From a virus: a stretch of DNA of 60,242 bases. Position numbers and translations under genes: made by a program. Below the pieces are notes generated by a model, which saw only the letters and a program-made list of their open reading frames with translations, was not told the origin of the DNA and did not search any database. Where the stretch lies: positions 1 through 60,242 of IMG/VR virus record IMGVR_UViG_3300042445_000754, one strand, 5' to 3'. Positions 2,659-60,242 of the stretch are shown in pieces. Every line of letters starts with the position of its first letter. The stretch's first letter is position 1.

Positions 2659-2663
2659 TAAAT

Positions 2664-3266: not shown

Positions 3267-3985
3267 GTATTGTACTTCCAACTAAAAAAGTTAAAGCAGA
3301 AAGAACTAATCCTAAGAGACTGATTATTTATTCTAAACCAAAGACTGGTAAGACCAGTGCATTTGCAGGATTAGATGATAATCTTATCATAGATTTAGAA
3401 AATGGTGCTGATTATGTAGAAGCTCTGAAGATTAAAGTTACTTCTCTTCAGGAGTTATTAGAAGCAGGTAAAGCTATCAAAGAAGCTGGTAAACCATACA
3501 AGTATGTAACAGTAGATACTGTGACTGCATTAGAAGATATGGTTATGCCTCTTGCAATCAAATTGTATAAACAAACTAGTATGGGTAAGAATTATGATGG
3601 AGACAATGTCTTGTCATTACCTAACGGTGCAGGTTATTTATATTTGAGACAAGCTTTCTTTCAAGTTTTAGATTTTATTGATACTTTAGCTCCCCACATT
3701 ATTTTATCTGGTCACATTAAGGACAAACAGGTAGATGATAAAGGTGAAATGGTATTAGCTGCCAATATTGATTTGACAGGTAAAATCAAATCTTTGATCT
3801 GTGCAAATGCAGATGCAATTGGTTATATGTTTAGAAAAGGTAATAAGACTGTTCTATCATTTAAAACTAGTGAAGAAGTGACTTGTGGTGCAAGACCAGA
3901 GCACTTAAGAAATGAAGAAATAGTAGTTTCTGAGATGAATGAAAAAGGTGAACTAGAGTTTCACTGGGATAAAATTTATGTGTAA
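3263..3985 (+). CDS. Sak4-like RecA-fold ATPase (single-strand annealing or recombination)
   Basis: 240-aa P-loop protein. The Walker A motif SKPKTGKT is at residues 24-31, preceded by a hydrophobic strand (RLIIY), and a Walker B-like strand YVTVDTVTALED follows around residue 82. This minimal RecA core, with IDLENGADYVEA after the P-loop, is characteristic of phage AAA_24/Sak4-type proteins, which act with an SSB in single-strand annealing. The neighbouring gene downstream is a probable SSB, which is the usual Sak4 arrangement. The start ATG overlaps the previous stop (ATGA). It could alternatively be a generic phage nucleotide-binding ATPase, but the context favours recombination. Confidence 0.82.
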   Translation: MSIVLPTKKVKAERTNPKRLIIYSKPKTGKTSAFAGLDDNLIIDLENGADYVEALKIKVTSLQELLEAGKAIKEAGKPYKYVTVDTVTALEDMVMPLAIKLYKQTSMGKNYDGDNVLSLPNGAGYLYLRQAFFQVLDFIDTLAPHIILSGHIKDKQVDDKGEMVLAANIDLTGKIKSLICANADAIGYMFRKGNKTVLSFKTSEEVTCGARPEHLRNEEIVVSEMNEKGELEFHWDKIYV

Positions 3986-21700: not shown

Positions 21701-24666
21701 GGTTCTCCTTGCTCATCCCTGTAACTGTAGATTAGATCATTAATAGTTTTAAATGCTTCAGCTACATCAAATTTAGATTTGGTAGCTTCATTCATTCTAG
21801 TTTGCAGTTCTCTAAGTTCTGTTATCAATGCATTTCTACTTTCCCAGTACTTAGGATCGTATTCCATTCTTAGATTCTGTCTTCTCCATTTTTCTAACTC
21901 AGCTTTAAAGTCTGCTGAACCAGGGGAGATTCCTTTAGTTTCTAATAAATCTGCAAACTCATTGTATGCACTTTGTAGTAATCCTTCAATAGGTCTCCAC
22001 TCATAGAAACCTTTTGTAGCGGCTCTGTGTTCTTGTAAAACTTCAGCAATGCTTAAGTCATAGATTCCATTCTCCGGATCATCTACTTTAGAAGTACCAT
22101 CTTCATAAGTAAGAGAATATAATTGTTGAAACTCTCTGAATGCAGCTTGAATAGTAGAGTATTTTTCAAATCTCTCATACTCATTCTCCATACTGTTTAG
22201 TAAGTTGTTGTAAGCTTGTAGCTTTTGCTTTCTAACAAAGTATGCTAATTTACCTACCTCAGACTTTTTAAAGATATCATCTTTCTCATAGAATTCTGGC
22301 ACATATTCTTGCCACATGAAGTCTCTTTTAAACTGTTCAAACTCCATAACTGCATCAGCAAGTTTTGTTTGATCTTCAGTTTTCTTTGCTTCTTCAATGT
22401 TCCACTCTAATAAATCATAATGGTATCTGTAGTCTTTGTATTTATCAAGATAAGCATAAACTTCTTTCTCAATAGGTTTACCTGTTTCTTTATCAAAATA
22501 CATTATCTTATCTTTGAACCCAAGCTTTTCTCTTAACTGAATAGAGTTAAGTTTGCTGAATCCTACTTTAGGTAGAAGTTCTTCTAGTTTTTTTCTAAAC
22601 TTCATAGACTGCTCCCAAACAACGTTTTGAACTTGAGTTCTCTCATTCTGAATAAACATTGCTAATGGTCCTACTATAACATCATTACTTGAACTATAGC
22701 TTTCCAACCATCTATTGAACCAGGTAACATCCTGTGCACCTCCTGTAAGAGCTGCTCGGATCTTATCCTCATCAACTACTAAGTCTTTGTATTCTTTTAA
22801 AAACCCTTTTAAAACATCCGCGGGAATACCTTTCTGTACTAATGCATCCACATCAGCATCTGTAAGAGTTTGTTGAACAACTTTATTATATAAGTCATCA
22901 ACTTCTTTCTCTAACTGATCTGCAGAGAAAGTTTGTTTTAATGCAATACCAAGGTTTCCTTTAAGTCTATCTTGAATATACTTAGACATGTATCCAGTAA
23001 TCTCCACATAGAACTGTACGTTATTGTTCTTAAGGATATTTGCAATATTGGTATTGATTCTTGTAATGTTTAATACAATCTCATTCAAGGTTTGATAGAA
23101 AGGATTACTACTTTCAATCAATTGACCTTCTGATGAAAGAGATTCATCAATTGCTTGAATCATTTTCAACCATGCTTTTGAATTTTGTTTGTATAACATT
23201 AACAAAGCAATAGTACTTCTATTGTTTATATTGGTATTGCTGATTCTTGAAACATCAAGTAACATGTTTTGGGTCATGCTGTTGATATTATCTAATGTAT
23301 TTACCAATGCTACTGCTCTTTGAAGATCTACATCTAGGGCCCCTTTGGCAGCATCTAATGCATTTTGAATCATCTGATCTTCTGTAAAACTTTCAGTGTC
23401 TACATTAAGATTGTCTTTTAGTGTGCTAACCACCTCACGTAGATATCTGTTTGTTCCCTGTTCAAATAATGAATCCTTTAAGAATTTTCTTGATGCTTTG
23501 TCTCCTTTAAAGTTCTCAGCTTCTGTAAGAATTCTTCTATTAGTTTCATATATTTCACGGACCACTTTAAGTTGTGACTCAGCATTAGAGAACTTGTTAA
23601 GTTCTTTTGCTCGGTCAACAACATTCCGTGAGAACATAACCAGATCTTCTTCTGTAATATTGTCTGTGTTAAACTCAAACTCTTTATCCAAGAGCATATC
23701 AGCTAACTCCTCTAGAGTAGTATCAACATCTAGTTTAGCAACGTTTACTTTATTCCCAAACAATTTTCTTAATAGCTGTTTAATAGCAGCCATAAGTTTG
23801 TTCATGAAACTTTGGAAACCTTCTGTTTCTATTTCATTGTTTATTCTATTAAGTGCTTTCAACTGCATTGCGTATGCTAGCACTTCTTCTTTGAATAGAT
23901 CAGAGTTCTCTTCTAGTTCAGGATAGTTATTTAATACATAGTATTTAATACCTTGACCTTCTTCTGTAGCTAATGCTTGATCATATAGTTTCTGAAATAG
24001 GATGTTGTTTGTCTTTCTCAGGCCTTGGAGAACCGGGTGAGAGAATTCGTGAAGTACAGTTCTTACATTTACATTATCACCTACTATATAAACAGTACCA
24101 GCATAATAAAATGCGGGTTCTCCATTGTATTTAACGGCTCTATTCTTTAAAATGTTTGCTGCTTCGTCTTGTGTAATAGTTTCAAATTGTGCACCAATAC
24201 CTTTAGATAATCTTTGTGCAAGTACTTCAGCAATTTCTCTTGATCTTTCGTTTTGTAACTCATCAAGTTTTACATCCATAAATAATACACCATTAATCTC
24301 TTGTAAAGATTGATCTACTTTAGGATTATCTAAAGCTGGCATATCTTTCATCATCATTGCATCATCTGGTCTTGCATTATACAAGTCCTGCAATCTCTCA
24401 AAAAGTTTTACATTAGGTTCAGCTCTAAGTACTCTATACTTTGCATCTCTCCAGTATGTAGATCTTTGTGGATCTACATGCTCAGACATATTAGTACTAA
24501 ATAACTTAGTACCATCAGTTTTTAGACCATACTTTGTTTCAGCTAATGCTGTTATCTGATCATTTAACTTATCAAAAAGATCTTCATTGATGATTCTTCT
24601 CACATCATTTGTAGCTCCTTTATCTTGTAAAAACTTTATTGAATTTAATTGTACCTGACAAACCAT
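18730..24666 (-). CDS. giant virion protein with zincin and LysM domains
   Basis: 1978 aa. The N-terminal region has a zinc-peptidase helix HEFSH (residues 206-210) and a downstream EE pair at 260-261 (FKEEVLAYAMQ), followed by LLRKLFGNKVN. A similar arrangement occurs in the 3315-aa neighbour. The middle is long and helical with many charged residues. A LysM-like module lies at about 1652-1692 (YVKGETLAEIAKKYYISVD, then DGQELII), followed near residue 1810 by a hydrophobic segment FFAIGLALLSLMLFGF. LysM binds peptidoglycan, so this protein may act at the cell wall and membrane during DNA entry. Large zincin-bearing proteins next to the virion RNA polymerase are typical of crAss-like phages. 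It ends 2 nt before the 46-aa gene. Confidence 0.85.
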   Translation of the reverse strand: MVCQVQLNSIKFLQDKGATNDVRRIINEDLFDKLNDQITALAETKYGLKTDGTKLFSTNMSEHVDPQRSTYWRDAKYRVLRAEPNVKLFERLQDLYNARPDDAMMMKDMPALDNPKVDQSLQEINGVLFMDVKLDELQNERSREIAEVLAQRLSKGIGAQFETITQDEAANILKNRAVKYNGEPAFYYAGTVYIVGDNVNVRTVLHEFSHPVLQGLRKTNNILFQKLYDQALATEEGQGIKYYVLNNYPELEENSDLFKEEVLAYAMQLKALNRINNEIETEGFQSFMNKLMAAIKQLLRKLFGNKVNVAKLDVDTTLEELADMLLDKEFEFNTDNITEEDLVMFSRNVVDRAKELNKFSNAESQLKVVREIYETNRRILTEAENFKGDKASRKFLKDSLFEQGTNRYLREVVSTLKDNLNVDTESFTEDQMIQNALDAAKGALDVDLQRAVALVNTLDNINSMTQNMLLDVSRISNTNINNRSTIALLMLYKQNSKAWLKMIQAIDESLSSEGQLIESSNPFYQTLNEIVLNITRINTNIANILKNNNVQFYVEITGYMSKYIQDRLKGNLGIALKQTFSADQLEKEVDDLYNKVVQQTLTDADVDALVQKGIPADVLKGFLKEYKDLVVDEDKIRAALTGGAQDVTWFNRWLESYSSSNDVIVGPLAMFIQNERTQVQNVVWEQSMKFRKKLEELLPKVGFSKLNSIQLREKLGFKDKIMYFDKETGKPIEKEVYAYLDKYKDYRYHYDLLEWNIEEAKKTEDQTKLADAVMEFEQFKRDFMWQEYVPEFYEKDDIFKKSEVGKLAYFVRKQKLQAYNNLLNSMENEYERFEKYSTIQAAFREFQQLYSLTYEDGTSKVDDPENGIYDLSIAEVLQEHRAATKGFYEWRPIEGLLQSAYNEFADLLETKGISPGSADFKAELEKWRRQNLRMEYDPKYWESRNALITELRELQTRMNEATKSKFDVAEAFKTINDLIYSYRDEQGEPDSGAMGKTRLERIRDLEQSIADFKFRFDSSTGLSKEDSEELRELSEKARKGLLQAGSAESKRYMYLLDLLNDQGISPEDAARIQDIFSELSDLSVNIPTTYYLETLNYNLSKQNIKELEIDEIDDFINTEEFEEILDADDAFKSWFETNHYVVQQYDKPSRAYIARYKRTKANTVSVPKDESNIKFTRILDRNGDEVVLMGTPNARHSRYQVKDEYRTIPFGADKSEYIGKYIDNKNQWLPRLYEPNSKYSALDNRFMNEKYFQMQAANSNEFKLLEAIKEYHLDNQKGQSSYSKLYLDMPRYALKKGDIYQAIQKGAYGQRFSELGANVKEWYKQALGKSVMDAENDLNYNPENNLVNTDLDGNQISYVPVSGIYNLDIEVQDADIFQGLFRYALSVQTQGKLLESLPLVQSILDTLEDPDNAPKELEKFDKNIYSLKGALTNAKKKFATNNRLGQVKSLIEREYYGKMVEGIEETHPGFGKWINQLQGLSAMGSLAVNIPSDLKNKYGGYVQLIIEGAGAEFINLKDIALARPWAEKAMLEWSTKGIYQTGPGAISTQLIQIFDPNFKSKDQFGREVERSLVKDLVNMEWMYMHRKFGEMQVAVSLFGAFMYGQKVDQILGDGTKKALRYIEAWEKDEDGIIRLKKGVHPGWNNLAVYHEYVKGETLAEIAKKYYISVDELKAKNRIKSEVQLEDGQELIIAKSELFMGLKNRIQGTSRKLFGAYDEMGQPEGNKLLLYRMFFFMRKWFTPMLMNRFGFDSKTISWTGGGDRYDWATTSYGKGFYITAFQTMLKTMKSGFKNYSYLTDQEKGAVRKMAGEGFFAIGLALLSLMLFGFDPEDDEKWKKLRAKSGAINEDSFNTYGFLANHMLLLAMGVQAESSAFVPLPNVKGINFGSDDYVKMITQTTTSWYNTVVLYIDIFGDVLDFVTFSEMDRYKRDTGPYSWKQEGELKIWSKLGKIFGLSGGTGDPVTQFENMVKNSSKRGS

Positions 24667-24667
24667 A

Positions 24668-27600
24668 TTATGAACATTTAAACGGATCTTCTTCTAATTC
24701 CAATTGTGTTAATATTTCAGCATCTGAAATTCCTTGACTTGCACTCACTAAGTCTCTCATTTGGTCATACTTAGTAGAACCTGGATTAACATATTGAAAC
24801 TCTTCAAATAACCTCTTACTTAAATATACAAATAATTCTTGAGGCATGGTATTAGGATCACCAAATCCATACTCTGGAAATGCAATTTTACCATCTTTAT
24901 CTTGAATTTGTTTGATTATATTAATTCTCTTTTCCCAAATATTTTTTAGTGTTTGGTATTGGTCAGGACTAAGCTCAACTTGTTTACCATTAACAACACT
25001 TGCAAATAAATTAGTTGGGAAATTAATAGACATGCTAGGTATTTCTGACATAAAGTTAGATGCACCACCTAGATTAGTACCTTTTGCAATTTGCTCAGGT
25101 TTAATCTCATAGACACTTGTGTTGTGTACAAAGACTACGTCCGGATTATTTTTACCTATGTTAGTGTAATAGTATATATTTTTAGCATTGCTATCATTAT
25201 ACATAAATACTCCTTCTTTATCTGTAGATCTTAAACCAAGTCTTTTTACTTCAGCTGTAGTATCTAGATTTGTAGAATCTTCTTCAGCTACTTGCTCACC
25301 TCTTTGTGGTGTAGGTGCAACTGTAGGACTAATTCTTTCAGGATTAGCATAATCCATATTAGACAAGTAGTCTTTAAATCTATTTTTGTTTAGATTAGTA
25401 ACTGAGTTCTGTCTGATAAACTGATCATAGAAGTTATCCAACACTGTAAATCCTTTTTTATTCAAAGCATCCATAAACTCACCAACCTCATCTTCTACAA
25501 CAGCTAAGAAATCTGTGTAGTCAACAACATTTGTAAAGCTTAATTTAGTTTTGTTTAGACCTGTTTGCAAGAAAGCAAATGTGTTTAAGTATTTAAACAT
25601 ATCACTGATTCTAGCATTCTCTTGTGGATCACTAACTTTTTGTACAGTTGGATCTGCTAATCTTTTAAGATCATTACTATAAAGATTGGCCTTATCATTA
25701 TCAAAACTCTTCTCAGCTAACAAGATGTTAAATGCAGTCTCAGTTTTATCTGAATCAAGTTTTAATCTACCCAATACTGGATAGTCTTTTGCAAGCTCTG
25801 GATTGTTTTGTAACAACTTAGACATTCTTACAGCAAAAGCATTATCACTATCTTGGAATAAGTGGAAGAAGTTGTATGAATTATCTAAAGCTTTGACAGC
25901 TAATAGTTTTTCATATGTATATCTTGCAGCTTTTTCACTTGATAAATCTGGGAACAGTTCTTTTGTAGTTTTTAGTTCTTCTTGGAATTCTACTGAAGTA
26001 GAGAAGTCTGTTGTAAGAGGGTATACTGATCTCAAGTACTCACGTTCTGAAACAAATTTCTGATATTCATTGAAGTTTGTTTCTTCATTATTCATGAATG
26101 TTGATGGATGTAATGGGTATAAACCTCTATCCTCGTAACTATTCTCTACATCTGATCCTTCTACCCAAGCCTGTGCTTTGAATTCTTTCTGTAATTGTTT
26201 AACATCTACATATAAAGTACCACCTTTAACAAATGCACCTCTCTTAAGTTCTTTTACAAGTGCAGTAGGAATTTTAGTCTCCATGTTTAAAGACATAAAT
26301 CCTTCTTCAGCTTTATATTTTCTTAGAGCATTCTGAAGAATAAAACTTACAATATCATTTCTAAATACATTGCTGAACATTTCAACATTCTTACCTGGAA
26401 AAGTAGTTTCAAGATCATTTCTGATTTGATTCTTTCTTGCAATTAAGTAATCACTAATCTGTTTGTGGTATCTTAATTTAAATAAAGGTCTACTTACAGC
26501 TAAAGCCATAGGTCCATTAAAGAAAGAACTAATTACAGAGTCATTCATCATTCTATCCAAAATTTCTCTTGGAATTCTTTCATCATACTGTAATTCATCA
26601 ATGTTAGCTTCACTTTGCTCTACATCAGATAAAGTAGACTTAGTAGCTGTATCTGGATTAGAACTCATTTTAAGTGCTGTATATCCAGAAATTTGTTGTT
26701 CTAATTCAAGGTAATGTAGGAACATAGCTTTTGCAATATCACTATCTGCATCATTATCCATGATAAGTTTTTCCATCTCCTTTTCAGTAAATGTTTGTTC
26801 TTTTCTACCATTGAAATGAGCATCCAATAATTCTTGGCCTTTTAAATATCTAGCATCATTACTAGAATTTTTAGCTAACTCAGCTTTGTCAAAATGTTTT
26901 CTAATAACTTCAGATGCAGCTTTGTATTTTGCTAATCCTGGACTATCTGGTTTCTTGTTAAGTACATCAGCAAAAGTAGATTTAGCAAGACGTTGTTCAT
27001 CCACATACTCTCTCACCAATGGGTTAGATACAAAATAGATTGCTTCTTGAACAGGTACACCAGCTTTAACTAGATAAAGTAAAGTTGGAGCTACCTCATA
27101 GTTACCTTGGATAAAGAAGATCCATGCATCTTTCTCAACATCCACCCAACCATTCATCATCTGAGAAATAACATCAGCTACTTTATTGACACCATCAACA
27201 TCATATAAATTTGACATAGAGATGACTTCTTTACCGTCCACAATCATTTTATTGTTTCTCAACCTCATGTTGCTCTTTCTCAATTCTTTCTTGATAGTAT
27301 ATTCATCCGGCATATAAGCACCAATTGAATTCATAATAACATTGAAAGTATTTTCAATAGCACCGAGACCTAAAGTTTTCTTACCTACAATATTAGATTC
27401 ATGTTTGTATATGTTATACATTGCTTCTAATACTCTTGTAGGACTAATTTCTCCAGTATTGTCAGTCATTTTATTATTCTTAGGATTGTACTCCGAAACA
27501 TACTCTGATAATTTTTCAGCAATGTCTTTAAGAATAAACGTACCATTTGGCATAATAAGAGATGCATAGTTATCAGGAAGCTCAAGAATGTTTCTGATAT

Positions 27601-30600
27601 CTTCTATAAGTTCATTTTCTAATGCAGCTTTTTGTTCTTTAACAGCTTTGGTAAAATTATCACCACCTCTAAGATTTTTTATAGCTTCATTATCTTTATA
27701 ACTACGTTTGATTATATTACCGTTTTCATCAATTGTATTCATGAAAATTGTAAGTTTATCAATATCAAAGTCACCCCCTGACTTAGCAACGATCTCTGCC
27801 GGTGGAATAATTATATTACCAGCTTGTGGAGGAAGGAATTCAAATACCTCAGCAAACTCCATAGAGTTAAGACCTTGTACAGGAATACGTACACCCACTA
27901 TAGTAATAGCTTTTCTGATTGCACCATCATTAGCATCTAACCAAGAGTCATCTTTGATTTTTTCATTTAATCTAGCTAATGATTTATCCATATCAAGTGT
28001 ACCATCTTCAAGATAAACACCTACAGTTTCTTCATTAGCATATTCTAAATTGAATAGGTTATAATATGAGCCCTGCATAGCTATCATAACTTTAGCAGCA
28101 GCAGTATAACCATTAGATTTTTTATGATAAGTAGGTAACAAGTATGTTGTAGAGGCCCATTTTTTGATCTCATCTTTACTTGCTTTTCTTAAATCAGGCT
28201 CTGTAAATTGATTTGCATACAAACCAACAGATACTTGAATTAATGGCTCACCTGTAACTTTTTGTTTGATTACTCTCTTATTAATCATAGAAAGTAATAA
28301 CTTCTCTATTTTAGCAGCTTCCGGGTGGAAAGAAAGATCATGGACTAAGTCTCCATTATTATCAAATACATCAATAAACTCAATAAGATCATCACTCAAA
28401 ACTTCTTCTCTTTCAAGATTTGTTCTGATCATGTTTACAAGTTTAGCAATGCTTGACTTATCTTTAGCTTTGTATTCTCCAGGAGTAGTTTCTTCATACC
28501 CCATCTCTTCAAGAAGTTCTATCTTAAGTAGGTTAGTATACTCTTCAACGTGATCTAGATATTTTTTTACTCTAGTGTTAGTAATGTCTTGATATTTTGT
28601 AGACTTGATTACACCTTGCTCATATAGACCCTCAAGAATTAACTTTCTCAACTGTGTAGAGAAGATTGATTTACCTTTGTAAGTTGCATTAACCTCTGTT
28701 TGGTTCTTCAAATACTCAGCATAAATAGTGTTAATTGTAAATTCTGAGTTTTTATTGAATGTTCCATCAGGGTTTAAAACAACATCTCCGTTTCCAATAT
28801 GACCTACTTTGGAACCAGACTCAAATAAAACGTAGTCTATTTGGTCTTTCATCATTTTCTCATGCAAGTCAAATAACGGAGTACCCTCTCTTCCTACTCC
28901 AGGAATAATAGGAGCAAGAGAGAACTTGTGGAAAGAGTTAACAGGAAGACCTGTTGATTCTATATTACCAAAGTACTGTAATTTATATGGAGGGAAGAAC
29001 TCTACTACATCCTCTACAGTGATATTCTCACCCATAGCAACTTTTCTGTATAGTAATTCTTGTTGATCACCCCAGTTACCTTCTAGATGTTTTAATCTTC
29101 TATAAGTCTCAAAGGATACAATACCCTGACCATCAGCAATCTTCATCTGTGCTTTGTCAGCTGAGAAGTATTCAGATGCTGCTTTGTCTGCAATTTCTTT
29201 TGCTTTCTTCTTGTCTTTAGTTCTTTCATATGCAGCTGCTTCAATCTCATCTCTGTACTCTTTGTACATAACAGAATTGAACTGCATTTCTTTTATAATA
29301 GCTGTTTGTAAAGTACCATCATAGTTTCTAACTTCATAACCTCTTCTATCAGCATAGTAGTTTTTCAAAGAACTAACATAGATTTGTGCTCTTTTGTCTG
29401 CTCTAAATCCTTTACCACCAGATGCTAGACCTGCATTACGTTTGTGGAATTCTTCTTTAGCATGATTATATTGTACTAAATCTCCATATGCAATGATAAC
29501 AGTCTCCATCTTATGGATGAAAGAGTTATATGTGTAAGCTTTTACTAATGCAGTTTCTATGTCTTTTTCAGTAAGATCTTCATTAGTAACTCTGATTCTT
29601 TCAATAAGACCTTTGTCTACATACTTAGCTTTTTGAAGTCTACCATAGTTAGCAGCAGTATCAATATCAAAATAATCTTCAACATCTTTTCTAATTTGAT
29701 CTCTTAACTCCGGGTTATTATCTAACTCAGTCATTAAATCAAAATCAGAAAGACTATTGTCTGAAGCTTTATCAATTATAGCATACAAACTTTTTTGTGT
29801 GGTTGCTCTAAGGACATCATCAAATGCAGTAAAGGCTTGTCCAGCCATAACTGCAGTTTTTTGACCATCTTTTCTTTTTACTTTTCTATTATAGCCAGCA
29901 TAATTCTTGAACTTATCTTTATCCTGTTGGAATCTAAAGATTCTATTACCCTCACCAACAAGATATCCTTCAATGATATCATATGATTTTAGTGTACCAT
30001 CAGCATAAGGTAAGAAAGACTCCATATCTACATAAAGTTTAGAAGCTTTTTTACCATTATAAGTCTTGATATCACCATCAAGAGTCATACCCATTGCAGT
30101 GTTTTTAGAAGCATGTCTCATGAATTCCTCAACACCACTCAATAACATCGTGTGAAACTCTTGTAGGTATTTACTAGTAGCATCCATTGATGCTGTAGAA
30201 GTACCTCCTTCATTTCTACGACTTACCATCTGAGTACCAGCAACATTTTGCAATACAATTTTTGTATCTGAAATTTTTTGACCATATGTTTGAGACATAG
30301 GATCAAGATCAAATATTGAAGTTAAAAGTTTTGAGAAAGGACTGAATGTATTATTTGATTCATTCAACCATCTCATATGTTTAAATCTACCATTTGGATC
30401 AGCTTCAGCTGTTGTAAGTTGTTGCCAATTGTCAGCATAATTAATAGCTGCAATAATTCTTGTGATAGTATTATCAACCATGTGTTCCCATACTCTGTTT
30501 CCTTCAGGGGTTTGTACACTAAAGTTTGAATAACTATCAGAGAATGCATTTTGAATTCCTGCTAATGCTCTGATTCTACCTCTTACTTCATCACTTTGTG

Positions 30601-33600
30601 CTTGGTTATCTCTAAGTGATTCAGGAAGACCATTAAGTAAGTATGTAAGTGGGTCTTTCTTAAATAAGAATGCGTCAGAAGATGCACTTTTATTTACTTT
30701 TTTGATAACCTCATACATTCTATCAACACCAAATGTTGTACTGAATGGCGTAGTTCTGTTGTTAATCATCTCTTTGATTGCAGAACTAGATTGATCTAAC
30801 ACAACACCAATAGCTTGTAAGAACTCATTAGCTTTACGGTAGTTAAATCTACCATCAGTACCAAAGTCTTTTACAATTTTAGCTGTGTTCAATATATTAT
30901 TACCATACTTATCTTTTGATACATATGGGTTAATTGTACTATCTGCAGTAACAAAGTTAGATTTCCAATCTTGAATTACCTGGTATACATCAAAGTTAGC
31001 TTTAGCAACACGGGCTTCAAAAGATTTATTTATACCTTCCTCAGTTCTAGCTTCTTCTTTGTTTAAGTTAAGCTGAACATATGGGATTCTTGGTTTCTTA
31101 AAGTCTTGCCAGAAATTTGTTTCTGATGCAAACTCCATTGAAGTATACTCCCCTAGAGCAGTCTTCTCATTAAAGAATGGATTAGGTAGTAACGTTTGTA
31201 GTTGTTCAAGCTCAGGATAATTCTCAGAATTTTCAAAGATTCTTGAGTACATATCCATTTCATCAAATGAACCTTCTAAGATTTTAGCAAGTCTATTCCA
31301 AGTAATGTCAATGTCCTGTAATACAGGAAGACCAAAAAGACCTTCTCTACTAGTTACAATCTCTCCATTTTCTTTGGATACTTTGAAGATACTAGCTAAT
31401 AACATCATAGTGTCTTCACTAGCAAGTTCTTTTGAAGAAATAGTGTTACCGTCATTTAACTTAAACAAGTTACTCTTCTCAATATTGCTTGGATCTTCAA
31501 TCTCTATATATTCATCTCTTAGTACACGGAATCTAGACTTCTCAAGATGATATGCTATAACATTGTTTTTTTCTTTACCATCAAGACTATCTGTTAGATT
31601 ACCAAAATTAGCTGTGATCTTATCTAACAATTCTAATTCTTCAATGAATTTAGGATCAGTTAATAACTCATCATCAGCCTCTAGATCAGTAACATAAGCA
31701 ATTCTTAATCTTTCAAATCTGTCATAGATATCTCTGTAAAGATCTTTTTTGTTTTCTGGATCTTTAAGAAGTTTTAATGCAGCAGCTGTTGTATTGAAGT
31801 CTCTGTTGTGAGCTTGAAATATAACAGACATCATGCTGTCCATTGCATCAGCAATTTTCTTAGACTCTTCTAATGTAAAGTTATCATTGATGATCTTACT
31901 TCTGTTTAGTTTCCCAAACATTACATTATCCATAGAAGGTTTTAAGCTAGATAGAATACTTGGATTCTCTGAAGCTCTGTATAATTTGTCAAACAATTCT
32001 TTTACAGACTCAACATCTTGCAAGCTTGTAGCAGCTTGTTTCTTACTAACTTTACCAAATAGCTTTTGGATAAACTGGTAGATCTTGTCAAACAGTCTAC
32101 CTAAAAGACCTTTAACTTCTTTCTTACCTTTTGATTTAGCATATGATCTAAATTCTTCAGCCAAAGATTCCTCTATATCAAAGAAACTTTTGCCTTTGTA
32201 TTTAGGTAACGATTGTATTTCTTCATAAAGTTTGATCTTCTCATCCTTAGTTAAAAGTAATTGAGAGAAACCGTGCCATGCTTCATGATAAACATCAACC
32301 ATGGTACCACCATCAGCTTCATAAAGAGTAATACCATAACCAGACCAGGTAGCAAATGCATCTGAGTTTACAATTTCTGTTACTCTCTCAAGACTAATGA
32401 ACTTACTCAAAGGTGAATTGTTCCACCATGTCTCTGCTTTTTGTCTGTCAGATTTAGAAGTAAAGACTTTGTCTAAGAATCTATCACGCAGTTTACTTCT
32501 GTCTAATCCTTTCTTTTTATATAAAGCACTGTTTGATGAACCATTAATGATATCATCTAATAGAGATACTCTAGTTGATGGATTGTTCTTAATGTTTGTT
32601 TCTTTAGCTTCAGCTTCTGTTTTAGAAGGAGTTTCTTTTGCAGTTACTGGCTTGGTACGGATCTGTTTTTTAGGAGCAGCTTTTGGTGCTTCTTTATCAA
32701 CCTTAGTTTTAGCAACAGGTGTTGATTGAGTAGGTTTTGGTCTACCAACAGGAATGATTCCATCAAACTCAACAGTACCTTCAGGTATTGCATAAGTCAG
32801 ATAAGCATTCATACCATTCTCATATGCATTAGTCTCAGCTGTATATGTAATTTTGATAAATGGTTTAATTACTTCAAAATAATTCTTAGAGACTTCAGTA
32901 ATTTTATCTCCTTCAATATTATAATCAGTAATAGTTTTACCCTTATACTTATTATTGTATTGCACATTAGCTGGCCAAAACTGATCTTTAACTTTGTCTT
33001 TTGGTCTAGCATTTAATAAATGATCTATAATAAGTTTTTTACCTTCTTCAGTATAAAGAACATCTTGAGGTATCTCTTTACCATTGATCTCTACAAAGAA
33101 TGTTTTCTCATTATTTACAATAAGAACCTTTGCTCTAATTCTATCTCTGTTATATGGAAGATTTGTTTTGTATCCTGTTTTAGGATCTTTCATCAAAGCA
33201 TTATTGATAAAGATTTCAAAGTATGCTTTTCTTTCATCCGGTGTCAACTCTCTACCTTTTAACTTTGCTGTAGTAGTTAATACTGTTGCAAGTTGTTCAG
33301 CCAAAGACTGATCAATGTCTGATCTTTGTAAAAATACTTCTTGGTCAACATTTAATCCTCCAGCTTTAGTTTTCTGAATAATAACATATTGTTTACCACT
33401 ATCTTTACCAGTTGTGATACCAGTATAATTTTTGATATCTGCTTCAGTAAGACCAGCTTCTTCCAAAGTCATAGTCTTAATTGCTGTTCTTGGAATACCA
33501 AATGTTCCTCCTAAAATTGGAAGAATGATTTGTAACTCACCATTAGACTCTTCAATTAATTTTCTTAATTGATAAAGCTCATTCATTTCTCTGTCTTGAC

Positions 33601-34615
33601 GATCTTTGATAGTTTTAACAAGTTGTTTGAATTGAGCTTCGGTTACTTTAACCTTACCATTACTCTCTTCTTCAATCAAAGCTTTCTGTCTACCAGCAAT
33701 TACTTCTGGTTGAACAAGATTATAATGACGATTACTTCTGTTAGATAATAATAACTTACCATCTACAAGGTTTACTTTTCTAAGATATTGGTAAACTATT
33801 CTACCCTCTTGAGGATTGTCTGTAATTGTACCGTCTTCTTTAAAATAAACTAGATCTCCTTTTGCATCAGTTATAACAGCTGCTATACCATTATCATTAG
33901 GATTCTTCTCTAGGAATAATCTATCATCAGTAGTCAATAACTCAGGAGAAATGTTTCTTGTAAGTTGAGTAGTCAATGCAAGTATTACTCCATTGTATTC
34001 AATCTCTTCTGTACCTACTCTTTGTTTAGATATTTCTACTATAGCTTTAACTACTTCAGAAAATAGTTTCTTTTCAGGATCTATATTATTTCTGTCAGCC
34101 TCAGATAGTGTTTCTGGATTTCCTGCAAATGCCATTTGGATAGAGGTAGCCCAAGGAGTTGTTACTTTAGCACCATTATCTTCATTAAATGACCAGAACT
34201 CCTTCTCGTCTACTTCAGGAACAAAGTCTTTTTTACCTTTGTTTGTATTTTTAATCTCAGAATCAATCTGCTGCTTGCTCTTTTTTTTAGTTGCAATATC
34301 CTTTCCTACCTCAGTAAGATCAGCATATCTTTTTCTCATTTGTGCAAGAGCAGTAAAATCAAAACCATTATCAACTAGATAATCATTAGCTTCATTGTCT
34401 TGAGTAACTAAATGGAATACATCAGGAATAGCTTGTGCATATAACATAGCTTTAACTTGATCTCCTGTAGCTTCTTTTACAACATTGTATGTGTCTTGAA
34501 CAATTTTATTCAAGTCAATTGCAGGTAATTCAGAATTACCTAATCTATCAGTTACTTCACCATAAAGTACTTCATATAAATCTAATACCTGCTCTCTATT
34601 TAAACTACATGCCAT
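24668..34615 (-). CDS. giant virion RNA polymerase (crAss-like, DFDID)
   Basis: 3315 aa, single chain. The catalytic metal-binding motif DFDID is at residues 2282-2286 (nt 27758-27772), preceded by KSGG. An RIPVQGLNS segment begins at Arg2243, 39 residues earlier; in E. coli RNA polymerase beta-prime the RAPTLHR motif precedes NADFDGD by about 35 residues. This matches the two-barrel polymerases of crAss-like phages, which are packaged in the virion and transcribe early genes. The N-terminal third also holds a zincin domain (HEAWH 777-781, EE 820-821) after a Lys/Pro/Thr-rich linker (about 630-690). Regions after the catalytic core are long, helical and unassigned. Its stop is 1 nt from the next start, so translation is coupled to the 1978-aa gene. 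Confidence 0.9.
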   Translation of the reverse strand: MACSLNREQVLDLYEVLYGEVTDRLGNSELPAIDLNKIVQDTYNVVKEATGDQVKAMLYAQAIPDVFHLVTQDNEANDYLVDNGFDFTALAQMRKRYADLTEVGKDIATKKKSKQQIDSEIKNTNKGKKDFVPEVDEKEFWSFNEDNGAKVTTPWATSIQMAFAGNPETLSEADRNNIDPEKKLFSEVVKAIVEISKQRVGTEEIEYNGVILALTTQLTRNISPELLTTDDRLFLEKNPNDNGIAAVITDAKGDLVYFKEDGTITDNPQEGRIVYQYLRKVNLVDGKLLLSNRSNRHYNLVQPEVIAGRQKALIEEESNGKVKVTEAQFKQLVKTIKDRQDREMNELYQLRKLIEESNGELQIILPILGGTFGIPRTAIKTMTLEEAGLTEADIKNYTGITTGKDSGKQYVIIQKTKAGGLNVDQEVFLQRSDIDQSLAEQLATVLTTTAKLKGRELTPDERKAYFEIFINNALMKDPKTGYKTNLPYNRDRIRAKVLIVNNEKTFFVEINGKEIPQDVLYTEEGKKLIIDHLLNARPKDKVKDQFWPANVQYNNKYKGKTITDYNIEGDKITEVSKNYFEVIKPFIKITYTAETNAYENGMNAYLTYAIPEGTVEFDGIIPVGRPKPTQSTPVAKTKVDKEAPKAAPKKQIRTKPVTAKETPSKTEAEAKETNIKNNPSTRVSLLDDIINGSSNSALYKKKGLDRSKLRDRFLDKVFTSKSDRQKAETWWNNSPLSKFISLERVTEIVNSDAFATWSGYGITLYEADGGTMVDVYHEAWHGFSQLLLTKDEKIKLYEEIQSLPKYKGKSFFDIEESLAEEFRSYAKSKGKKEVKGLLGRLFDKIYQFIQKLFGKVSKKQAATSLQDVESVKELFDKLYRASENPSILSSLKPSMDNVMFGKLNRSKIINDNFTLEESKKIADAMDSMMSVIFQAHNRDFNTTAAALKLLKDPENKKDLYRDIYDRFERLRIAYVTDLEADDELLTDPKFIEELELLDKITANFGNLTDSLDGKEKNNVIAYHLEKSRFRVLRDEYIEIEDPSNIEKSNLFKLNDGNTISSKELASEDTMMLLASIFKVSKENGEIVTSREGLFGLPVLQDIDITWNRLAKILEGSFDEMDMYSRIFENSENYPELEQLQTLLPNPFFNEKTALGEYTSMEFASETNFWQDFKKPRIPYVQLNLNKEEARTEEGINKSFEARVAKANFDVYQVIQDWKSNFVTADSTINPYVSKDKYGNNILNTAKIVKDFGTDGRFNYRKANEFLQAIGVVLDQSSSAIKEMINNRTTPFSTTFGVDRMYEVIKKVNKSASSDAFLFKKDPLTYLLNGLPESLRDNQAQSDEVRGRIRALAGIQNAFSDSYSNFSVQTPEGNRVWEHMVDNTITRIIAAINYADNWQQLTTAEADPNGRFKHMRWLNESNNTFSPFSKLLTSIFDLDPMSQTYGQKISDTKIVLQNVAGTQMVSRRNEGGTSTASMDATSKYLQEFHTMLLSGVEEFMRHASKNTAMGMTLDGDIKTYNGKKASKLYVDMESFLPYADGTLKSYDIIEGYLVGEGNRIFRFQQDKDKFKNYAGYNRKVKRKDGQKTAVMAGQAFTAFDDVLRATTQKSLYAIIDKASDNSLSDFDLMTELDNNPELRDQIRKDVEDYFDIDTAANYGRLQKAKYVDKGLIERIRVTNEDLTEKDIETALVKAYTYNSFIHKMETVIIAYGDLVQYNHAKEEFHKRNAGLASGGKGFRADKRAQIYVSSLKNYYADRRGYEVRNYDGTLQTAIIKEMQFNSVMYKEYRDEIEAAAYERTKDKKKAKEIADKAASEYFSADKAQMKIADGQGIVSFETYRRLKHLEGNWGDQQELLYRKVAMGENITVEDVVEFFPPYKLQYFGNIESTGLPVNSFHKFSLAPIIPGVGREGTPLFDLHEKMMKDQIDYVLFESGSKVGHIGNGDVVLNPDGTFNKNSEFTINTIYAEYLKNQTEVNATYKGKSIFSTQLRKLILEGLYEQGVIKSTKYQDITNTRVKKYLDHVEEYTNLLKIELLEEMGYEETTPGEYKAKDKSSIAKLVNMIRTNLEREEVLSDDLIEFIDVFDNNGDLVHDLSFHPEAAKIEKLLLSMINKRVIKQKVTGEPLIQVSVGLYANQFTEPDLRKASKDEIKKWASTTYLLPTYHKKSNGYTAAAKVMIAMQGSYYNLFNLEYANEETVGVYLEDGTLDMDKSLARLNEKIKDDSWLDANDGAIRKAITIVGVRIPVQGLNSMEFAEVFEFLPPQAGNIIIPPAEIVAKSGGDFDIDKLTIFMNTIDENGNIIKRSYKDNEAIKNLRGGDNFTKAVKEQKAALENELIEDIRNILELPDNYASLIMPNGTFILKDIAEKLSEYVSEYNPKNNKMTDNTGEISPTRVLEAMYNIYKHESNIVGKKTLGLGAIENTFNVIMNSIGAYMPDEYTIKKELRKSNMRLRNNKMIVDGKEVISMSNLYDVDGVNKVADVISQMMNGWVDVEKDAWIFFIQGNYEVAPTLLYLVKAGVPVQEAIYFVSNPLVREYVDEQRLAKSTFADVLNKKPDSPGLAKYKAASEVIRKHFDKAELAKNSSNDARYLKGQELLDAHFNGRKEQTFTEKEMEKLIMDNDADSDIAKAMFLHYLELEQQISGYTALKMSSNPDTATKSTLSDVEQSEANIDELQYDERIPREILDRMMNDSVISSFFNGPMALAVSRPLFKLRYHKQISDYLIARKNQIRNDLETTFPGKNVEMFSNVFRNDIVSFILQNALRKYKAEEGFMSLNMETKIPTALVKELKRGAFVKGGTLYVDVKQLQKEFKAQAWVEGSDVENSYEDRGLYPLHPSTFMNNEETNFNEYQKFVSEREYLRSVYPLTTDFSTSVEFQEELKTTKELFPDLSSEKAARYTYEKLLAVKALDNSYNFFHLFQDSDNAFAVRMSKLLQNNPELAKDYPVLGRLKLDSDKTETAFNILLAEKSFDNDKANLYSNDLKRLADPTVQKVSDPQENARISDMFKYLNTFAFLQTGLNKTKLSFTNVVDYTDFLAVVEDEVGEFMDALNKKGFTVLDNFYDQFIRQNSVTNLNKNRFKDYLSNMDYANPERISPTVAPTPQRGEQVAEEDSTNLDTTAEVKRLGLRSTDKEGVFMYNDSNAKNIYYYTNIGKNNPDVVFVHNTSVYEIKPEQIAKGTNLGGASNFMSEIPSMSINFPTNLFASVVNGKQVELSPDQYQTLKNIWEKRINIIKQIQDKDGKIAFPEYGFGDPNTMPQELFVYLSKRLFEEFQYVNPGSTKYDQMRDLVSASQGISDAEILTQLELEEDPFKCS

Positions 34616-56320: not shown

Positions 56321-59300
56321 CTATATTTTTTCAAACGTATAACCTAATTTCTTTAATTGTTGCATAGTAGCTTCATCTATTTCATCTCCAAGTTCATAAT
56401 CAATAGAACCTCCTTGTTGAGCATATTGCATTTCTTCTTGAGAATCATTTTTTGCAATATAGTTAAATAGATCTTTTAATCCTTTCTCATCTTTTACAAC
56501 TTTGAAAAGATTGTATAATGCAGGATCATAATTAGGATTATTTTTATCCAATGCACCATTTTTCTCTGCTTCAGATTTCCAAGACTTAATATCCTCATCT
56601 GTAATAACTTGTGTTGGTTGAAGACCTTTACTTTGTCTTACCTCAAATATTAAAGACTGTATGTTGTCTTGACTAGGATCTGTAAGATAATCATAATAAT
56701 CCCTAGCTGCTTTTTTATCTGCACCTTTAAGATCACCCCAACCTTCTTCAAATGATTTTAAGTTAGGTTGAATAATAATTTGTTCAGCAGGTAATATTTT
56801 ATCACCAAATTTATCCCAAAGTCTTGTTCTTTCTTCATGTGCAATAGTTGAATTTAATTCTTTTGGATCAGCTTTCAACTTTTCATTTAGTAATATTTTT
56901 TCAGCATCACCCTCATCATCATACACTAACTCTCCCATTACATTTGGATCATCATTAATTATACTAGCATACTCATAAGGCACAGATTGATTTAATTCAT
57001 CCAATAGTGGAGATTGCGGATTATAAACTGGTAAGAATTGTTTTAATGTACGTTCATATGTCTTATTACCTATTTCATCAAAAGGTAATTGTCTATTCCC
57101 ATACCAGTTACTAAAGTAAGAGTTTGCATCTATTAAATTACTTGAAGGATCATTTTCTTCAATAGGTGTATCCATTTGAACAGGAGCTGGGCCACCATTT
57201 CTTTTTTGGTTTAAAGCACCTCCATATTTTCTTTCAGCATCTATTAATTTCTGTTTATTACCAGTTGTTAAATACTCTTCAAATGATTTTACTAATTTTT
57301 TTTCAACGTCACTTTGTTGTTCTTGATTTTTTGAAGCAGCATTTAAGTAAGACATTATCAAAGCATCATCAAGATCTTTATATAACTCCTGTTGTTTTAT
57401 TTTCTTTACATCACTCTCATCAAAAACTGTTATTTCTCTTGGATCAAAAGCACCAGTAAAACCTTTATCTCTTAATGCATCTGCAGCTTGAGCTTGACTT
57501 GTTCTAATTAAATCTTCATTACCAGTTGGATTAAAACTTGTTCTTAAAGCCTGTTCATACTCATATCCATTTTGAAAATTTCTTGGATCTACACCATTTA
57601 TCAAGCCTACTTTTTTTATAAAGTCATTAGTCATTGGTGCATTATAATTTAAAAAGTTTTGAGGATTTTTAAATAAAGCTTCTGAAACATAAGGTGTAAA
57701 TGTTTTAGATTGAGGTATTAAACCATAACCACCTAAACTACTACTTCTAGCTGCACTTGCAGCAAAGTCAGGATGTTGTGTAAAATATGCACCACCTTCT
57801 TGATTACCTAAACCACTACCTCTAAAAGATCTATCAAAATTTTCAAATGATGTTTTATGTCCAGTTAAACCACCTGTTATTATTGGTTGATCACCATCAT
57901 ACATAATTGGATTGTAACCACTATACTGAGTTAAAAAATCACTCTCTAGCATAGGAACTTTTTCCAATAATTTTTTTGTTTGCTGTAAGTCTAACTTTGG
58001 CAATTCAAACTGAGCACCTGGAATAGCAGCTGGAAGATTAATCTGACTAGATAAACCTTTTAAATAATTATCTGCTACATAATTTAAAGCAGGTAAATTT
58101 TTACTTACAGCACCTAAACCTCTAAGTGATTTTATCAAATTAGAACTAACTACCAGACCTAATTTAGGAGGAACTACTTTAGCAACACCACCTAAGTTAT
58201 ATTTTCTAGTAAGTTTATAATTTGGAATTCTTATTTCACCTGTATTGCTTCCTGGAATAAGTTGTAAATAAGCTTTTTCTGTTAAACCCCTACCTTGTAA
58301 ATCTGCATTCAATCTACCAATCATCTCATCAGCAGCCTTTGGATCCCATTGTCTTAATGAACGTAACCCTTTTGGTACATTATCTAAACCTTCAAATAGT
58401 TTACTATGTGTTGCCGCAAAATTTAAAGGAATATAATTTTCAAAATTCATATCCCAATCTTTTTTATTTGCCATGTTTAGTAATAGATTATATGAATCTA
58501 AACTTAAACTATGTGGTTCTAATATAGAAGGAAACGGTTGTGGAAATGCATCATTAGCTATTTTAAATGCTTTTCCTGCTTCTAAAGGACTAGTCATTTT
58601 AGTACTAAAATGAAAAACATTATCCTCTACTTTATTATTAGGATGAACAGAAAGATAACCAGTATCACCGCTTATACTTAAAGGGTAATTTATTTGAAGT
58701 GCTTTAAGATCAGCGGGTATATTTTTTAAATCTATTTGAGTAGGATTTATTTTAGGTAATATAGTAGTAGTTCCACGAGGAAATACAGTACTGCTTACAC
58801 CAGCAGGTCCTATTATAGTACCAGTATATCTTCTAACAGGTGGTGCTTTAGTTACAGTTTTAACTACTTTACCTAAGTTAGCTTTAGTTAACTCAGGTAC
58901 AGAAATGTCTTCTATAATAAAACCACCCTTAGCATACTCTTGTATTTCTTTAGGAGTAAGTTCTGCTTCTATAAATGCTGGTGACACATCTTTATAATGT
59001 TCTGCAAAGTATCTTGCATCATTTGGATTATCAAACTGCATTGCTTCTTTAGAAGAATGATCATAATCTCCAAAATTTAATTGACCATTTTCCTCTTGTA
59101 TTTGTGGAACAGCATAGTTATCCATACTGGCCATATAATGTGTTCCATAATTACCATCACCAAAATCATATGGTTGGTCTGGTACAACAATCATTCTTTG
59201 TGCAGCGGGATTACCAAATTCATTTGCATATGCAAGTTTGGATTTCATAACTGCATTTGTATAGTCTTGTAAATGCTCAGGAAGAGGAATATCATATTCT

Positions 59301-60106
59301 CCTTCTTCATTATGTGAATCATTTACTGCTTGACCTTCAGCAGTAGTTTCTCTCCAATTTCTATAATCATTAAGTTTATCCTGTAACAAATAATAATCTT
59401 CTAATGTCCAGCTATCTGGATTTCCTATTTGACTTTCTATGTCTCTAATTTCTTGACCCCATTCTTCTGGAGTTGTAGCTCCTCCTTTTCTATAGTACTT
59501 AGCATTAGGATCATACACTTTATTCTTTCTAGACTTAGGTTTAGCAAAGAATGAATTTTGTGTAAAGAACTTATTTGTAGCCTCTAGACTTCTTGAGTAT
59601 CCTTTAGAGTTTTTCTTTCTAGGCATCTTTGGTAAAGAACCACCTTTTTTAAAATCATCTGGAGTTTCTAAAGTGGGGTCGTTATCTTCGTAATAGTTAC
59701 CTGCTATTTCTTCTCCCGGTTGAATGTTCTTAAGGGCTCTTAAATATCTTTTGTTACCTTGAATTATAGAACCAGCATTGAATGCATCATCAGAATGATT
59801 GTAATGTGCTCCTACAACAGGAGTCTCTTTACTTTTCAAATATGTTTCACCATTCTTTTGGAAAGATGATTTAATATGTGAAAGACCAATTATCTCACCA
59901 GCTCTGATTGGTTCATCAGCAAACAAACCTTTACCTTGTATGTTAGATTTTTGTATACTAACTTTTTTGTTAGGTTTTTCATTTAAACCACCGTTACTCA
60001 TCAAAGGGTTTCCACTTGGATCTACCAATATATCTCGTCTTTTAACAGGTGCTTTAGCACTACCAAGATTTTTGAGTGAATCAATAAGAACTTTTTTATT
60101 ATACAT
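56321..60106 (-). CDS. large virion protein with SET methyltransferase and ADP-ribosyltransferase-like domains
   Basis: 1261 aa. Residues about 49-141 form a SET domain: NIQGKGLFADEPIRAGEII, then YNHSDDAFNAG (NHS motif 103-105) and RALKNIQPGEEIAGNYY (the GEE..Y motif). SET enzymes transfer methyl groups from S-adenosylmethionine to lysines. Residues about 740-905 resemble an ART fold: His750 (GHKTSFENFD), Tyr774 (GAYFTQHPDFA) and Glu897 (ITVFDESDVKK), a possible H-Y-E triad. At 1090 a degenerate zinc motif HEERT lacks the second His. GG motifs punctuate the chain (FKKGG, YRKGG, YAKGG, YNLGG, RKYGG, AQQGG), and it ends LKKLGYTFEKI. Stop is TAG. Virion location is inferred from neighbours; delivery into the host would place both enzymes in the cell. 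Confidence 0.8.
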   Translation of the reverse strand: MYNKKVLIDSLKNLGSAKAPVKRRDILVDPSGNPLMSNGGLNEKPNKKVSIQKSNIQGKGLFADEPIRAGEIIGLSHIKSSFQKNGETYLKSKETPVVGAHYNHSDDAFNAGSIIQGNKRYLRALKNIQPGEEIAGNYYEDNDPTLETPDDFKKGGSLPKMPRKKNSKGYSRSLEATNKFFTQNSFFAKPKSRKNKVYDPNAKYYRKGGATTPEEWGQEIRDIESQIGNPDSWTLEDYYLLQDKLNDYRNWRETTAEGQAVNDSHNEEGEYDIPLPEHLQDYTNAVMKSKLAYANEFGNPAAQRMIVVPDQPYDFGDGNYGTHYMASMDNYAVPQIQEENGQLNFGDYDHSSKEAMQFDNPNDARYFAEHYKDVSPAFIEAELTPKEIQEYAKGGFIIEDISVPELTKANLGKVVKTVTKAPPVRRYTGTIIGPAGVSSTVFPRGTTTILPKINPTQIDLKNIPADLKALQINYPLSISGDTGYLSVHPNNKVEDNVFHFSTKMTSPLEAGKAFKIANDAFPQPFPSILEPHSLSLDSYNLLLNMANKKDWDMNFENYIPLNFAATHSKLFEGLDNVPKGLRSLRQWDPKAADEMIGRLNADLQGRGLTEKAYLQLIPGSNTGEIRIPNYKLTRKYNLGGVAKVVPPKLGLVVSSNLIKSLRGLGAVSKNLPALNYVADNYLKGLSSQINLPAAIPGAQFELPKLDLQQTKKLLEKVPMLESDFLTQYSGYNPIMYDGDQPIITGGLTGHKTSFENFDRSFRGSGLGNQEGGAYFTQHPDFAASAARSSSLGGYGLIPQSKTFTPYVSEALFKNPQNFLNYNAPMTNDFIKKVGLINGVDPRNFQNGYEYEQALRTSFNPTGNEDLIRTSQAQAADALRDKGFTGAFDPREITVFDESDVKKIKQQELYKDLDDALIMSYLNAASKNQEQQSDVEKKLVKSFEEYLTTGNKQKLIDAERKYGGALNQKRNGGPAPVQMDTPIEENDPSSNLIDANSYFSNWYGNRQLPFDEIGNKTYERTLKQFLPVYNPQSPLLDELNQSVPYEYASIINDDPNVMGELVYDDEGDAEKILLNEKLKADPKELNSTIAHEERTRLWDKFGDKILPAEQIIIQPNLKSFEEGWGDLKGADKKAARDYYDYLTDPSQDNIQSLIFEVRQSKGLQPTQVITDEDIKSWKSEAEKNGALDKNNPNYDPALYNLFKVVKDEKGLKDLFNYIAKNDSQEEMQYAQQGGSIDYELGDEIDEATMQQLKKLGYTFEKI

Positions 60107-60242
60107 TATCTAGGAGAAAATTGATTTTTACTATTAGACATTTTGAAAATCACATTGACATCGTCACCTTGATTTTTTCTAAGGTTTATAAAATTCAAAT
60201 AATTTCTAAACTTCTTTCTTTGCATTTGAGGTTTAGCATAAT
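60106..60242 (-). CDS. 3' end of an upstream minus-strand gene (partial)
   Basis: An open frame enters from the window edge and ends at TAA (60106-60108), overlapping the start codon of the 1261-aa gene (TAATG). The visible 44 residues are basic and Asn-rich (MQRKKFRNYLNFINLRKNQ, ending SNSKNQFSPR). Too little is present to name it; the overlap shows it is in the same operon. Confidence 0.6.
   Translation of the reverse strand, partial: YAKPQMQRKKFRNYLNFINLRKNQGDDVNVIFKMSNSKNQFSPR

What the first reader, a model, noticed from the sequence alone, without database searches (positions are those of the whole stretch)
59684..59962. SET-domain lysine methyltransferase fused to a phage virion-type protein
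The N-terminal region of the 1261-aa protein shows the ordered SET hallmarks: the GKGLFA entry strand, an NHS motif (YNHSDDAFNAG) and the RALKxIxxGEEIxxxY ending, at the right spacing over about 95 residues. SET enzymes are mainly eukaryotic or from bacterial effectors. Here it heads a large protein in a virion gene block, so it may be injected and methylate host proteins (RNA polymerase, ribosome, nucleoid proteins) or other virion proteins.
Basis: partly seen in the sequence, partly recalled or inferred. Interest (0 to 1): 0.85.

Follow-up and report, generated by a model that had tools for sequence, protein, structure and literature searches.

The report
SET methyltransferase module in crassvirus cargo
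A crAss-like phage encodes, directly behind its tail-tip gene, a patchwork protein that carries a complete, strongly conserved protein-lysine-methyltransferase (SET) domain; the same domain turns up at different places in the equivalent protein of many related phages, which suggests an interchangeable enzyme that the virion injects into the bacterial cell.

Summary
Residues 47-141 of the 1261-aa minus-strand protein (56321-60106) are a SET domain: Pfam SET E=3e-7, above the curated cut-off; AlphaFold pLDDT 87, best PDB match the minimal viral enzyme vSET. GxG-F, NH and the terminal Tyr are kept in all 17 distinct crassviral SETs examined.

The genome is a crassvirus (close relative: Pfam crassvirus capsid, ring-2 and muzzle hits). 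The SET gene's start overlaps the stop codon of the muzzle gene, the slot that encodes a virion/ejection protein in cultured crassviruses. Of 77 post-muzzle proteins from 80 muzzle loci, 17 carry SET (one more phage has it in the next gene), near the N-terminus or at aa 469, 482 or 576; relatives also carry lysozyme, ADP-ribosyltransferase, GNAT or metallopeptidase-like modules. SET is the most constrained part (dN/dS about 0.1). These proteins share an N-terminal leader and a recurrent 22-aa tag, internal and C-terminal.

Best reading: an exchangeable SET effector in a crassviral polyvalent cargo protein, probably injected and methylating a host protein. Fold, conservation, context and mobility are shown; packaging, activity and substrate are inferred. 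SETs are not rare in bacteria or phages; fusion, recurrence and tag appear undescribed in the open papers searched.

The parts
56321..60106 (-). 1261-aa modular post-muzzle (cargo-position) protein carrying the SET domain
   Evidence: Open frame; orthologue in L003, 81% identical, 1178 aa; directly follows the muzzle gene in the crassviral loci where the next gene is readable
59969..60106 (-). N-terminal leader, aa 1-46 (MYNKKVLIDSLKNLGSAKAPVKRRDILVDP...)
   Evidence: phmmer finds it at the start of about 30 post-muzzle proteins; visible in most of the 77 starts
59684..59968 (-). SET domain, aa 47-141
   Evidence: Pfam PF00856 E=3.3e-7; AlphaFold pLDDT 86.9; Foldseek to vSET; dN/dS 0.09-0.10
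59921..59935 (-). GKGLF, aa 58-62: SET entry motif (AdoMet-binding GxG-F)
   Evidence: second G and F invariant over 50 viral SETs; motif in 17/17 crassviral SETs
59792..59800 (-). NHS, aa 103-105
   Evidence: NH 17/17, NHS 14/17 in distinct crassviral SETs
59693..59716 (-). GEEIAGNY, aa 131-138; Y138 aligns with the terminal Tyr of vSET
   Evidence: Tyr invariant in 50 viral SETs; alignment with vSET
59267..59638 (-). Exchangeable linker, about aa 157-280 (basic RKKNSKGYSRSLEATNKFF... segment); replaced by a zinc-ribbon-like segment in L003
   Evidence: Alignment A2; linker kept in L018
58904..59269 (-). Module 2, aa 280-401 (GNPAAQRMIV..GTHYMASMDNYAVPQIQ..), widespread in post-muzzle proteins, ends in the tag
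   Evidence: phmmer, 114 domain rows
58904..58972 (-). Internal copy of the recurrent tag, aa 379-401 (IEAELTPKEIQEYAKGGFIIEDI)
   Evidence: Tag profile 27.7 bits
57371..58039 (-). Module 4, aa 690-912, ADP-ribosyltransferase-like by eye only; unproven
   Evidence: No Pfam hit; AlphaFold failed, pLDDT 35.7
56822..56839 (-). HEERTR, aa 1090-1095: possible degenerate HExxH of a metallopeptidase-like C-terminal module
   Evidence: Module matches L039 aa 695-916, overlapping its weak DUF6782 match; HExxH not intact
56324..56410 (-). C-terminal tag, aa 1233-1261 (GSIDYELGDEIDEATMQQLKKLGYTFEKI)
   Evidence: Tag pattern in 50/58 complete post-muzzle proteins, 0/277 upstream ORFs
60106..60242 (-). 3' end of the muzzle gene; its stop codon TAA overlaps the SET gene's ATG by one base
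   Evidence: Sequence; same junction in L002/L003
53061..56321 (-). Next cargo-block protein (1086 aa), no SET, ends in the same tag (LSKKEIDQYIKDGYIIEDE)

Best explanation
The SET domain is a catalytically competent, exchangeable effector module in a crassviral polyvalent cargo protein. The protein is made late, packaged in the tail/capsid cargo space next to the muzzle, and passed into the bacterium ahead of or with the DNA. There the SET domain, close to the end that would exit first, uses AdoMet to methylate lysines of one or more host proteins (substrate unknown; takeover or anti-defence), while other modules of the same polypeptide open the envelope or carry other activities. Shown: SET fold and intact active-site residues, purifying selection, crassviral post-muzzle context, module mobility, shared leader and tag. 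Inferred: packaging, injection, AdoMet chemistry, host (not virion) substrate.
For: SET by profile and fold. Active-site residues kept in 17/17 distinct crassviral SETs. dN/dS 0.09-0.10, the lowest of any region of the protein. Gene placed directly after the muzzle; crassviral MCP, ring 2 and MUZ in the closely related L003 genome. Cultured relatives: phi4:1 gp041, the gene after the muzzle, is a virion protein by MS/MS and carries a phage lysozyme; phicrAss001 gp45 in the same slot is in virions by MS and cryo-EM and is modelled as ejected N-terminus first (PMC10172136). In relatives SET shares the polypeptide with lysozyme, SLT, ART-PolyVal, GNAT, or weak amidase or metallopeptidase matches. 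At least 5 changes of SET presence on the muzzle tree; some SETs group against the muzzle tree.
Against: No proteomics or assay exists for this virus. The protein shows no crAss_CARG1 domain and no shared leader or tag with gp45, so the link to C1 is by position. In the window protein itself only SET is recognised; the ART-like and metallopeptidase-like parts are unproven. SET is absent from most post-muzzle proteins, so it is dispensable. A virion-protein substrate fits much of the data too.
Confidence: 0.6

Rival explanations
1. The SET domain is active but acts inside the virus: it methylates lysines of the basic linkers or other virion/cargo proteins during assembly, for example to tune packing or unfolding for ejection.
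For: Linkers next to the SET are Lys-rich (RKKNSKGYSRS...); by position SET is made together with other late virion proteins.
Against: The basic segment occurs without SET (20 proteins) and SET without it (6 proteins), so they are not tightly coupled. Most relatives assemble without any detected SET (9 of 26 records).
Confidence: 0.2
2. The domain keeps the SET fold but serves as a binding or structural piece (AdoMet or peptide binding, no catalysis).
For: Some PR/SET domains in other organisms have lost catalysis (own knowledge); NHS is not fully kept (14/17) and the region between the GxG strand and NHS is very short.
Against: GxG-F, NH and the terminal Tyr are kept in 17/17 and dN/dS is the lowest in the protein; closest fold is the active minimal enzyme vSET.
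Confidence: 0.1
3. The post-muzzle protein is a structural/ejection-channel protein that is not delivered to the cytoplasm, and modules such as SET act in the envelope or are neutral passengers.
For: Same slot as gp45, proposed to form the transmembrane channel; peptidoglycan-degrading modules in relatives.
Against: AdoMet is cytoplasmic, so a conserved AdoMet-dependent SET is hard to explain outside it (established biochemistry); purifying selection argues against a neutral passenger.
Confidence: 0.1

Closest known systems
vSET (PBCV-1 A612L), minimal viral SET lysine methyltransferase
   Same: Best PDB match by sequence (E=0.03) and by fold (TM 0.65/0.70); GxG, NHS, GEExxxxY
   Different: vSET is a 119-aa stand-alone enzyme of a eukaryotic virus; here the domain is about 95 aa, shorter before NHS, inside a bacteriophage cargo-position protein
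Stand-alone phage SET proteins (cyanophages P-SSM7, P-RSM6; Stenotrophomonas phages Moby and Ps15)
   Same: Same small SET type; those aligned here (cyanophages, Moby) are about 28-32% identical, with S, GxG-F, N, GEE, Y; Ps15 is annotated in the literature
   Different: About 100-aa separate genes, not fused to cargo-position proteins
Polyvalent proteins of phages and conjugative elements (Iyer et al. 2017, PMC5512222)
   Same: Large multidomain proteins near virion genes combining disparate effector domains, predicted to be injected; ART-PolyVal is found with SET in relative L201
   Different: The paper's main text contains no 'SET domain', 'SET methyl' or 'protein methyl' phrase and no crAss; an intact zincin metallopeptidase is not found in the window protein
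phicrAss001 cargo protein C1 (gp45, crAss_CARG1)
   Same: Gene directly after the muzzle; large; cargo slot
   Different: No CARG1 domain in the window protein; no shared leader or tag in gp45
T4 Alt
   Same: Works-like comparison: virion-packaged enzyme injected to modify host proteins (PMC5512222)
   Different: ADP-ribosyltransferase, unrelated fold; not crassviral

Membership tests
SET domain (PF00856) | Profile match above curated cut-off | tested here: met
   31.1 bits vs 22.4, model 1-104/105
SET domain (PF00856) | GxG-F, NH(S), GEExxxxY in order with the terminal Tyr | tested here: met
SET domain (PF00856) | SET fold | tested here: met
   pLDDT 86.9; 217 PDB chains at E<=0.001, the best ones listed being SET/PR-domain entries with vSET first; the pseudoknot threading itself was not traced by coordinates
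SET domain (PF00856) | AdoMet-dependent lysine methylation | not testable with these tools
   needs biochemistry
Crassvirales | Crassviral muzzle, MCP and ring proteins in the same genome | tested here: met
   On the close relative L003/L267: crAss_MUZ 1.5e-27, Crass_capsid 3.7e-31, CrAss_Ring_2 1.7e-22; the window itself holds only the muzzle's 3' end
crAss_CARG1 / gp45 cargo protein C1 | CARG1 portal-binding domain | tested here: not met
   No PF25725 hit in the window protein, present in gp45
Polyvalent proteins | Several disparate effector domains in one polypeptide, encoded among virion genes | tested here: inconclusive
   Met in relatives (SET with ART-PolyVal, lysozyme, GNAT); in the window protein only SET is recognised
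Polyvalent proteins | Packaged and injected | not testable with these tools
   MS/MS only for the positional counterpart in phi4:1

The most novel reading that the evidence does not exclude
This branch of crassviruses has a standard delivery format for injected proteins: an N-terminal leader and a reusable 22-aa junction/C-terminal tag (docking or cleavage signal) between which effector modules, including a lysine methyltransferase, are slotted and swapped between phages; the SET module would be a virion-injected phage protein-lysine methyltransferase, for which I found no precedent.
Probability: 0.35. Interest if true: 0.82.

Novelty: new variant of a known kind. Interest (0 to 1): 0.6.

Why it matters
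Injected phage enzymes that modify host proteins are known for ADP-ribosylation (T4 Alt); lysine methylation by a virion enzyme would be a new way of takeover. Crassviruses are abundant and their cargo proteins poorly understood. The shared leader and tag also make a direct test possible of how cargo is chosen for packaging, and give a handle for finding other injected effectors in uncultured phages.

Tried and rejected
Direct tblastn of the SET region (E<=0.01) and of the whole protein (E<=1e-5) against named phages found nothing; only weak SET matches at a looser limit. The mention of 'set domain' in the phicrAss001 paper is 'C2-set domains' of immunoglobulins, not SET. Homology to gp45/C1 was considered and rejected. 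An ART domain in aa 690-912 was suspected by eye; the AlphaFold model with 3 sequences failed (pLDDT 36), so no claim is made and no fold search was run on it. Coupling of SET with the adjacent basic segment was tested and not found to be tight. Several independent origins of crassviral SETs: one clade is not rejected (p-AU 0.37), so one origin followed by loss and exchange is possible.

Full report
CHECK. The minus-strand ORF 56321-60106 encodes 1261 aa. Pfam SET matches aa 58-138 over nearly the whole model (E=3.3e-7 on the first 169 aa, 1.8e-5 on the whole protein; cut-off 22.4 bits, scores 31.1 and 25.5). It is the only SET in the record. With 50 viral SETs aligned, AlphaFold gives pLDDT 86.9, and Foldseek's best PDB match is vSET of PBCV-1, E=9.8e-7, probability 1.00. 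By sequence the best PDB match is also vSET (E=0.03, weak alone), whose alignment pairs Y138 with the terminal Tyr of vSET.

THE VIRUS. Close relatives in IMG/VR are L002 (100% identical over the protein; a longer contig) and L003 (SET 95%, whole protein 81% identical). The gene before it in these contigs encodes a protein of about 1846 aa, matching annotated crassviral muzzle proteins (csAssE-Sib; Cellulophaga phi4:1 gp042, a virion protein by MS/MS) and Pfam crAss_MUZ (1.5e-27); the L003 genome also carries crassviral MCP (3.7e-31) and ring protein 2 (1.7e-22). hhalign of the muzzles with phicrAss001 gp44 gives E=4e-5 over 156 columns. In the window the muzzle's stop codon overlaps the ATG of the SET gene by one base.

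THE SLOT. A scan by muzzle rather than by SET gave 80 loci with 77 readable next genes, 58 of them complete. The muzzle is kept (48-100% identical to the L003 one), but the next gene is a patchwork of 363-2191 aa (complete ones). 17 of 77 carry SET; one more phage (L200) has it in the second gene. These counts include near-copies. SET starts at aa 3, 42-83, 469, 482 or 576 of the post-muzzle protein and at aa 661 of the second gene. In relatives it shares the polypeptide with SLT transglycosylase (L048), phage lysozyme (L225 at cut-off; L041 below it), ART-PolyVal (L201, 6.6e-13), GNAT (L235), and sub-threshold matches to DUF6782 metallopeptidase (L039) and Pol-beta (L044). On a muzzle tree, SET presence needs at least 5 gains or losses. 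In the SET tree, L231's SET groups with the window's (99/91) although its muzzle lies in another clade: the module probably moves between phages. A tree of 94 columns is weak; a single origin of crassviral SETs is not rejected.

FUNCTIONAL CONSTRAINT. Between window and L003, dN/dS is 0.09 in SET against 0.16-0.62 elsewhere; against L018 it is 0.10 versus 0.19-0.59. GxG-F, NH and the terminal Tyr are kept in 17/17 distinct crassviral SETs (NHS in 14). This argues for a working enzyme.

LEADER AND TAG. Most of these proteins start with a leader like M(Y/G)NKKVLSKAxxELxKAKAPxKPKDIIxDP, though several SET-first proteins lack it. A short tag ending G-Y-x-(I/V/F)-E closes 50 of 58 complete post-muzzle proteins and 8 of 62 downstream ORFs, but 0 of 277 upstream ORFs and 0 of 78 muzzles; random 14-mers match at 0.14%. 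The pattern was written after seeing the data and the loci include near-copies, so the contrast matters more than the exact figures. A profile of the tag finds about 70 further internal matches, a few of them marginal, usually followed by (D/E)ISVPxLxKAQ or LPKAQxG, which resembles the starts of other cargo ORFs. I read it as a module junction; docking peptide and processing site are both possible. phicrAss001 gp45 and its neighbours lack it by eye.

MECHANISM. In phicrAss001 the post-muzzle protein gp45 lies in capsid and tail and is proposed to leave N-terminus first (PMC10172136). phi4:1 gp041, same slot, is in virions and has a phage lysozyme. By position, then, the SET protein is virion cargo (inferred). 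A SET enzyme needs cytoplasmic AdoMet, so the host cytoplasm after injection is the most likely place of action (inference from biochemistry); methylation of virion proteins during assembly is the main rival. The substrate is unknown.

COMPARISON. The domain is a member of the SET family on the sequence and fold tests run; activity was not testable. The whole protein works like the polyvalent proteins of Iyer et al. 2017 (PMC5512222), whose main text has no 'SET domain', 'SET methyl' or 'protein methyl' phrase and no crAss; membership of the window protein itself is inconclusive because only SET is recognised in it. It is not a CARG1 protein. SETs in phages are not new: small ones are annotated in Moby and Ps15, and UniProt holds a 971-aa 'SET domain-containing protein' of an uncultured virus, the best BFVD match. 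Searches of open-access papers found no description of SET in crassviruses; subscription papers were not covered.

SCORES. SET fold: near certain. Crassviral post-muzzle module: near certain. Injected methyltransferase acting on a host protein: about 0.6.

Noticed in passing
window 58904-58972 and 56324-56410; post-muzzle proteins of L185-L264: Recurrent tag ELTPEEIxEYxKGGYIVEDISVPxLxKAQ, internal and C-terminal in crassviral cargo-position proteins, absent from upstream structural genes; possible docking or processing signal.
   Followed up: partly
L003:10001-13537 aa 157-200 against window 59267-59638: Between nearly identical SET domains and similar downstream modules, the linker is swapped for a zinc-ribbon-like segment (CKKCGWKW...CHKCGG) in L003: recent module exchange.
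   Followed up: partly
L010:2974-3273 (Cyanophage P-RSM6): Stand-alone SET gene directly before the baseplate wedge gene gp25, so small phage SETs may also sit in virion gene blocks.
   Followed up: no
L009 (MW202744.1) 2530-3291: Podovirus record with a SET at the C-terminus of a longer protein, between a phage stabilization protein gene and the genes leading to terL.
   Followed up: no
L044:1870-3210, L045, L046: 446-aa protein with a weak N-terminal nucleotidyltransferase (Pol-beta) match and a C-terminal SET of the crassviral type; genomic context not examined.
   Followed up: no
L066:5920-6303: 127-aa stand-alone SET on a 181-kb viral contig with the same NYRLQPDLEQP ending as crassviral cargo SETs; possible donor or offshoot.
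   Followed up: no
window 18730-24666 and 24668-34615: Giant cargo-block proteins: 1978 aa with LysM and HEFSH, 3315 aa with HEAWH; no DxDGD motif found in any of the seven large proteins other than the SET protein, which was not scanned for it.
   Followed up: no
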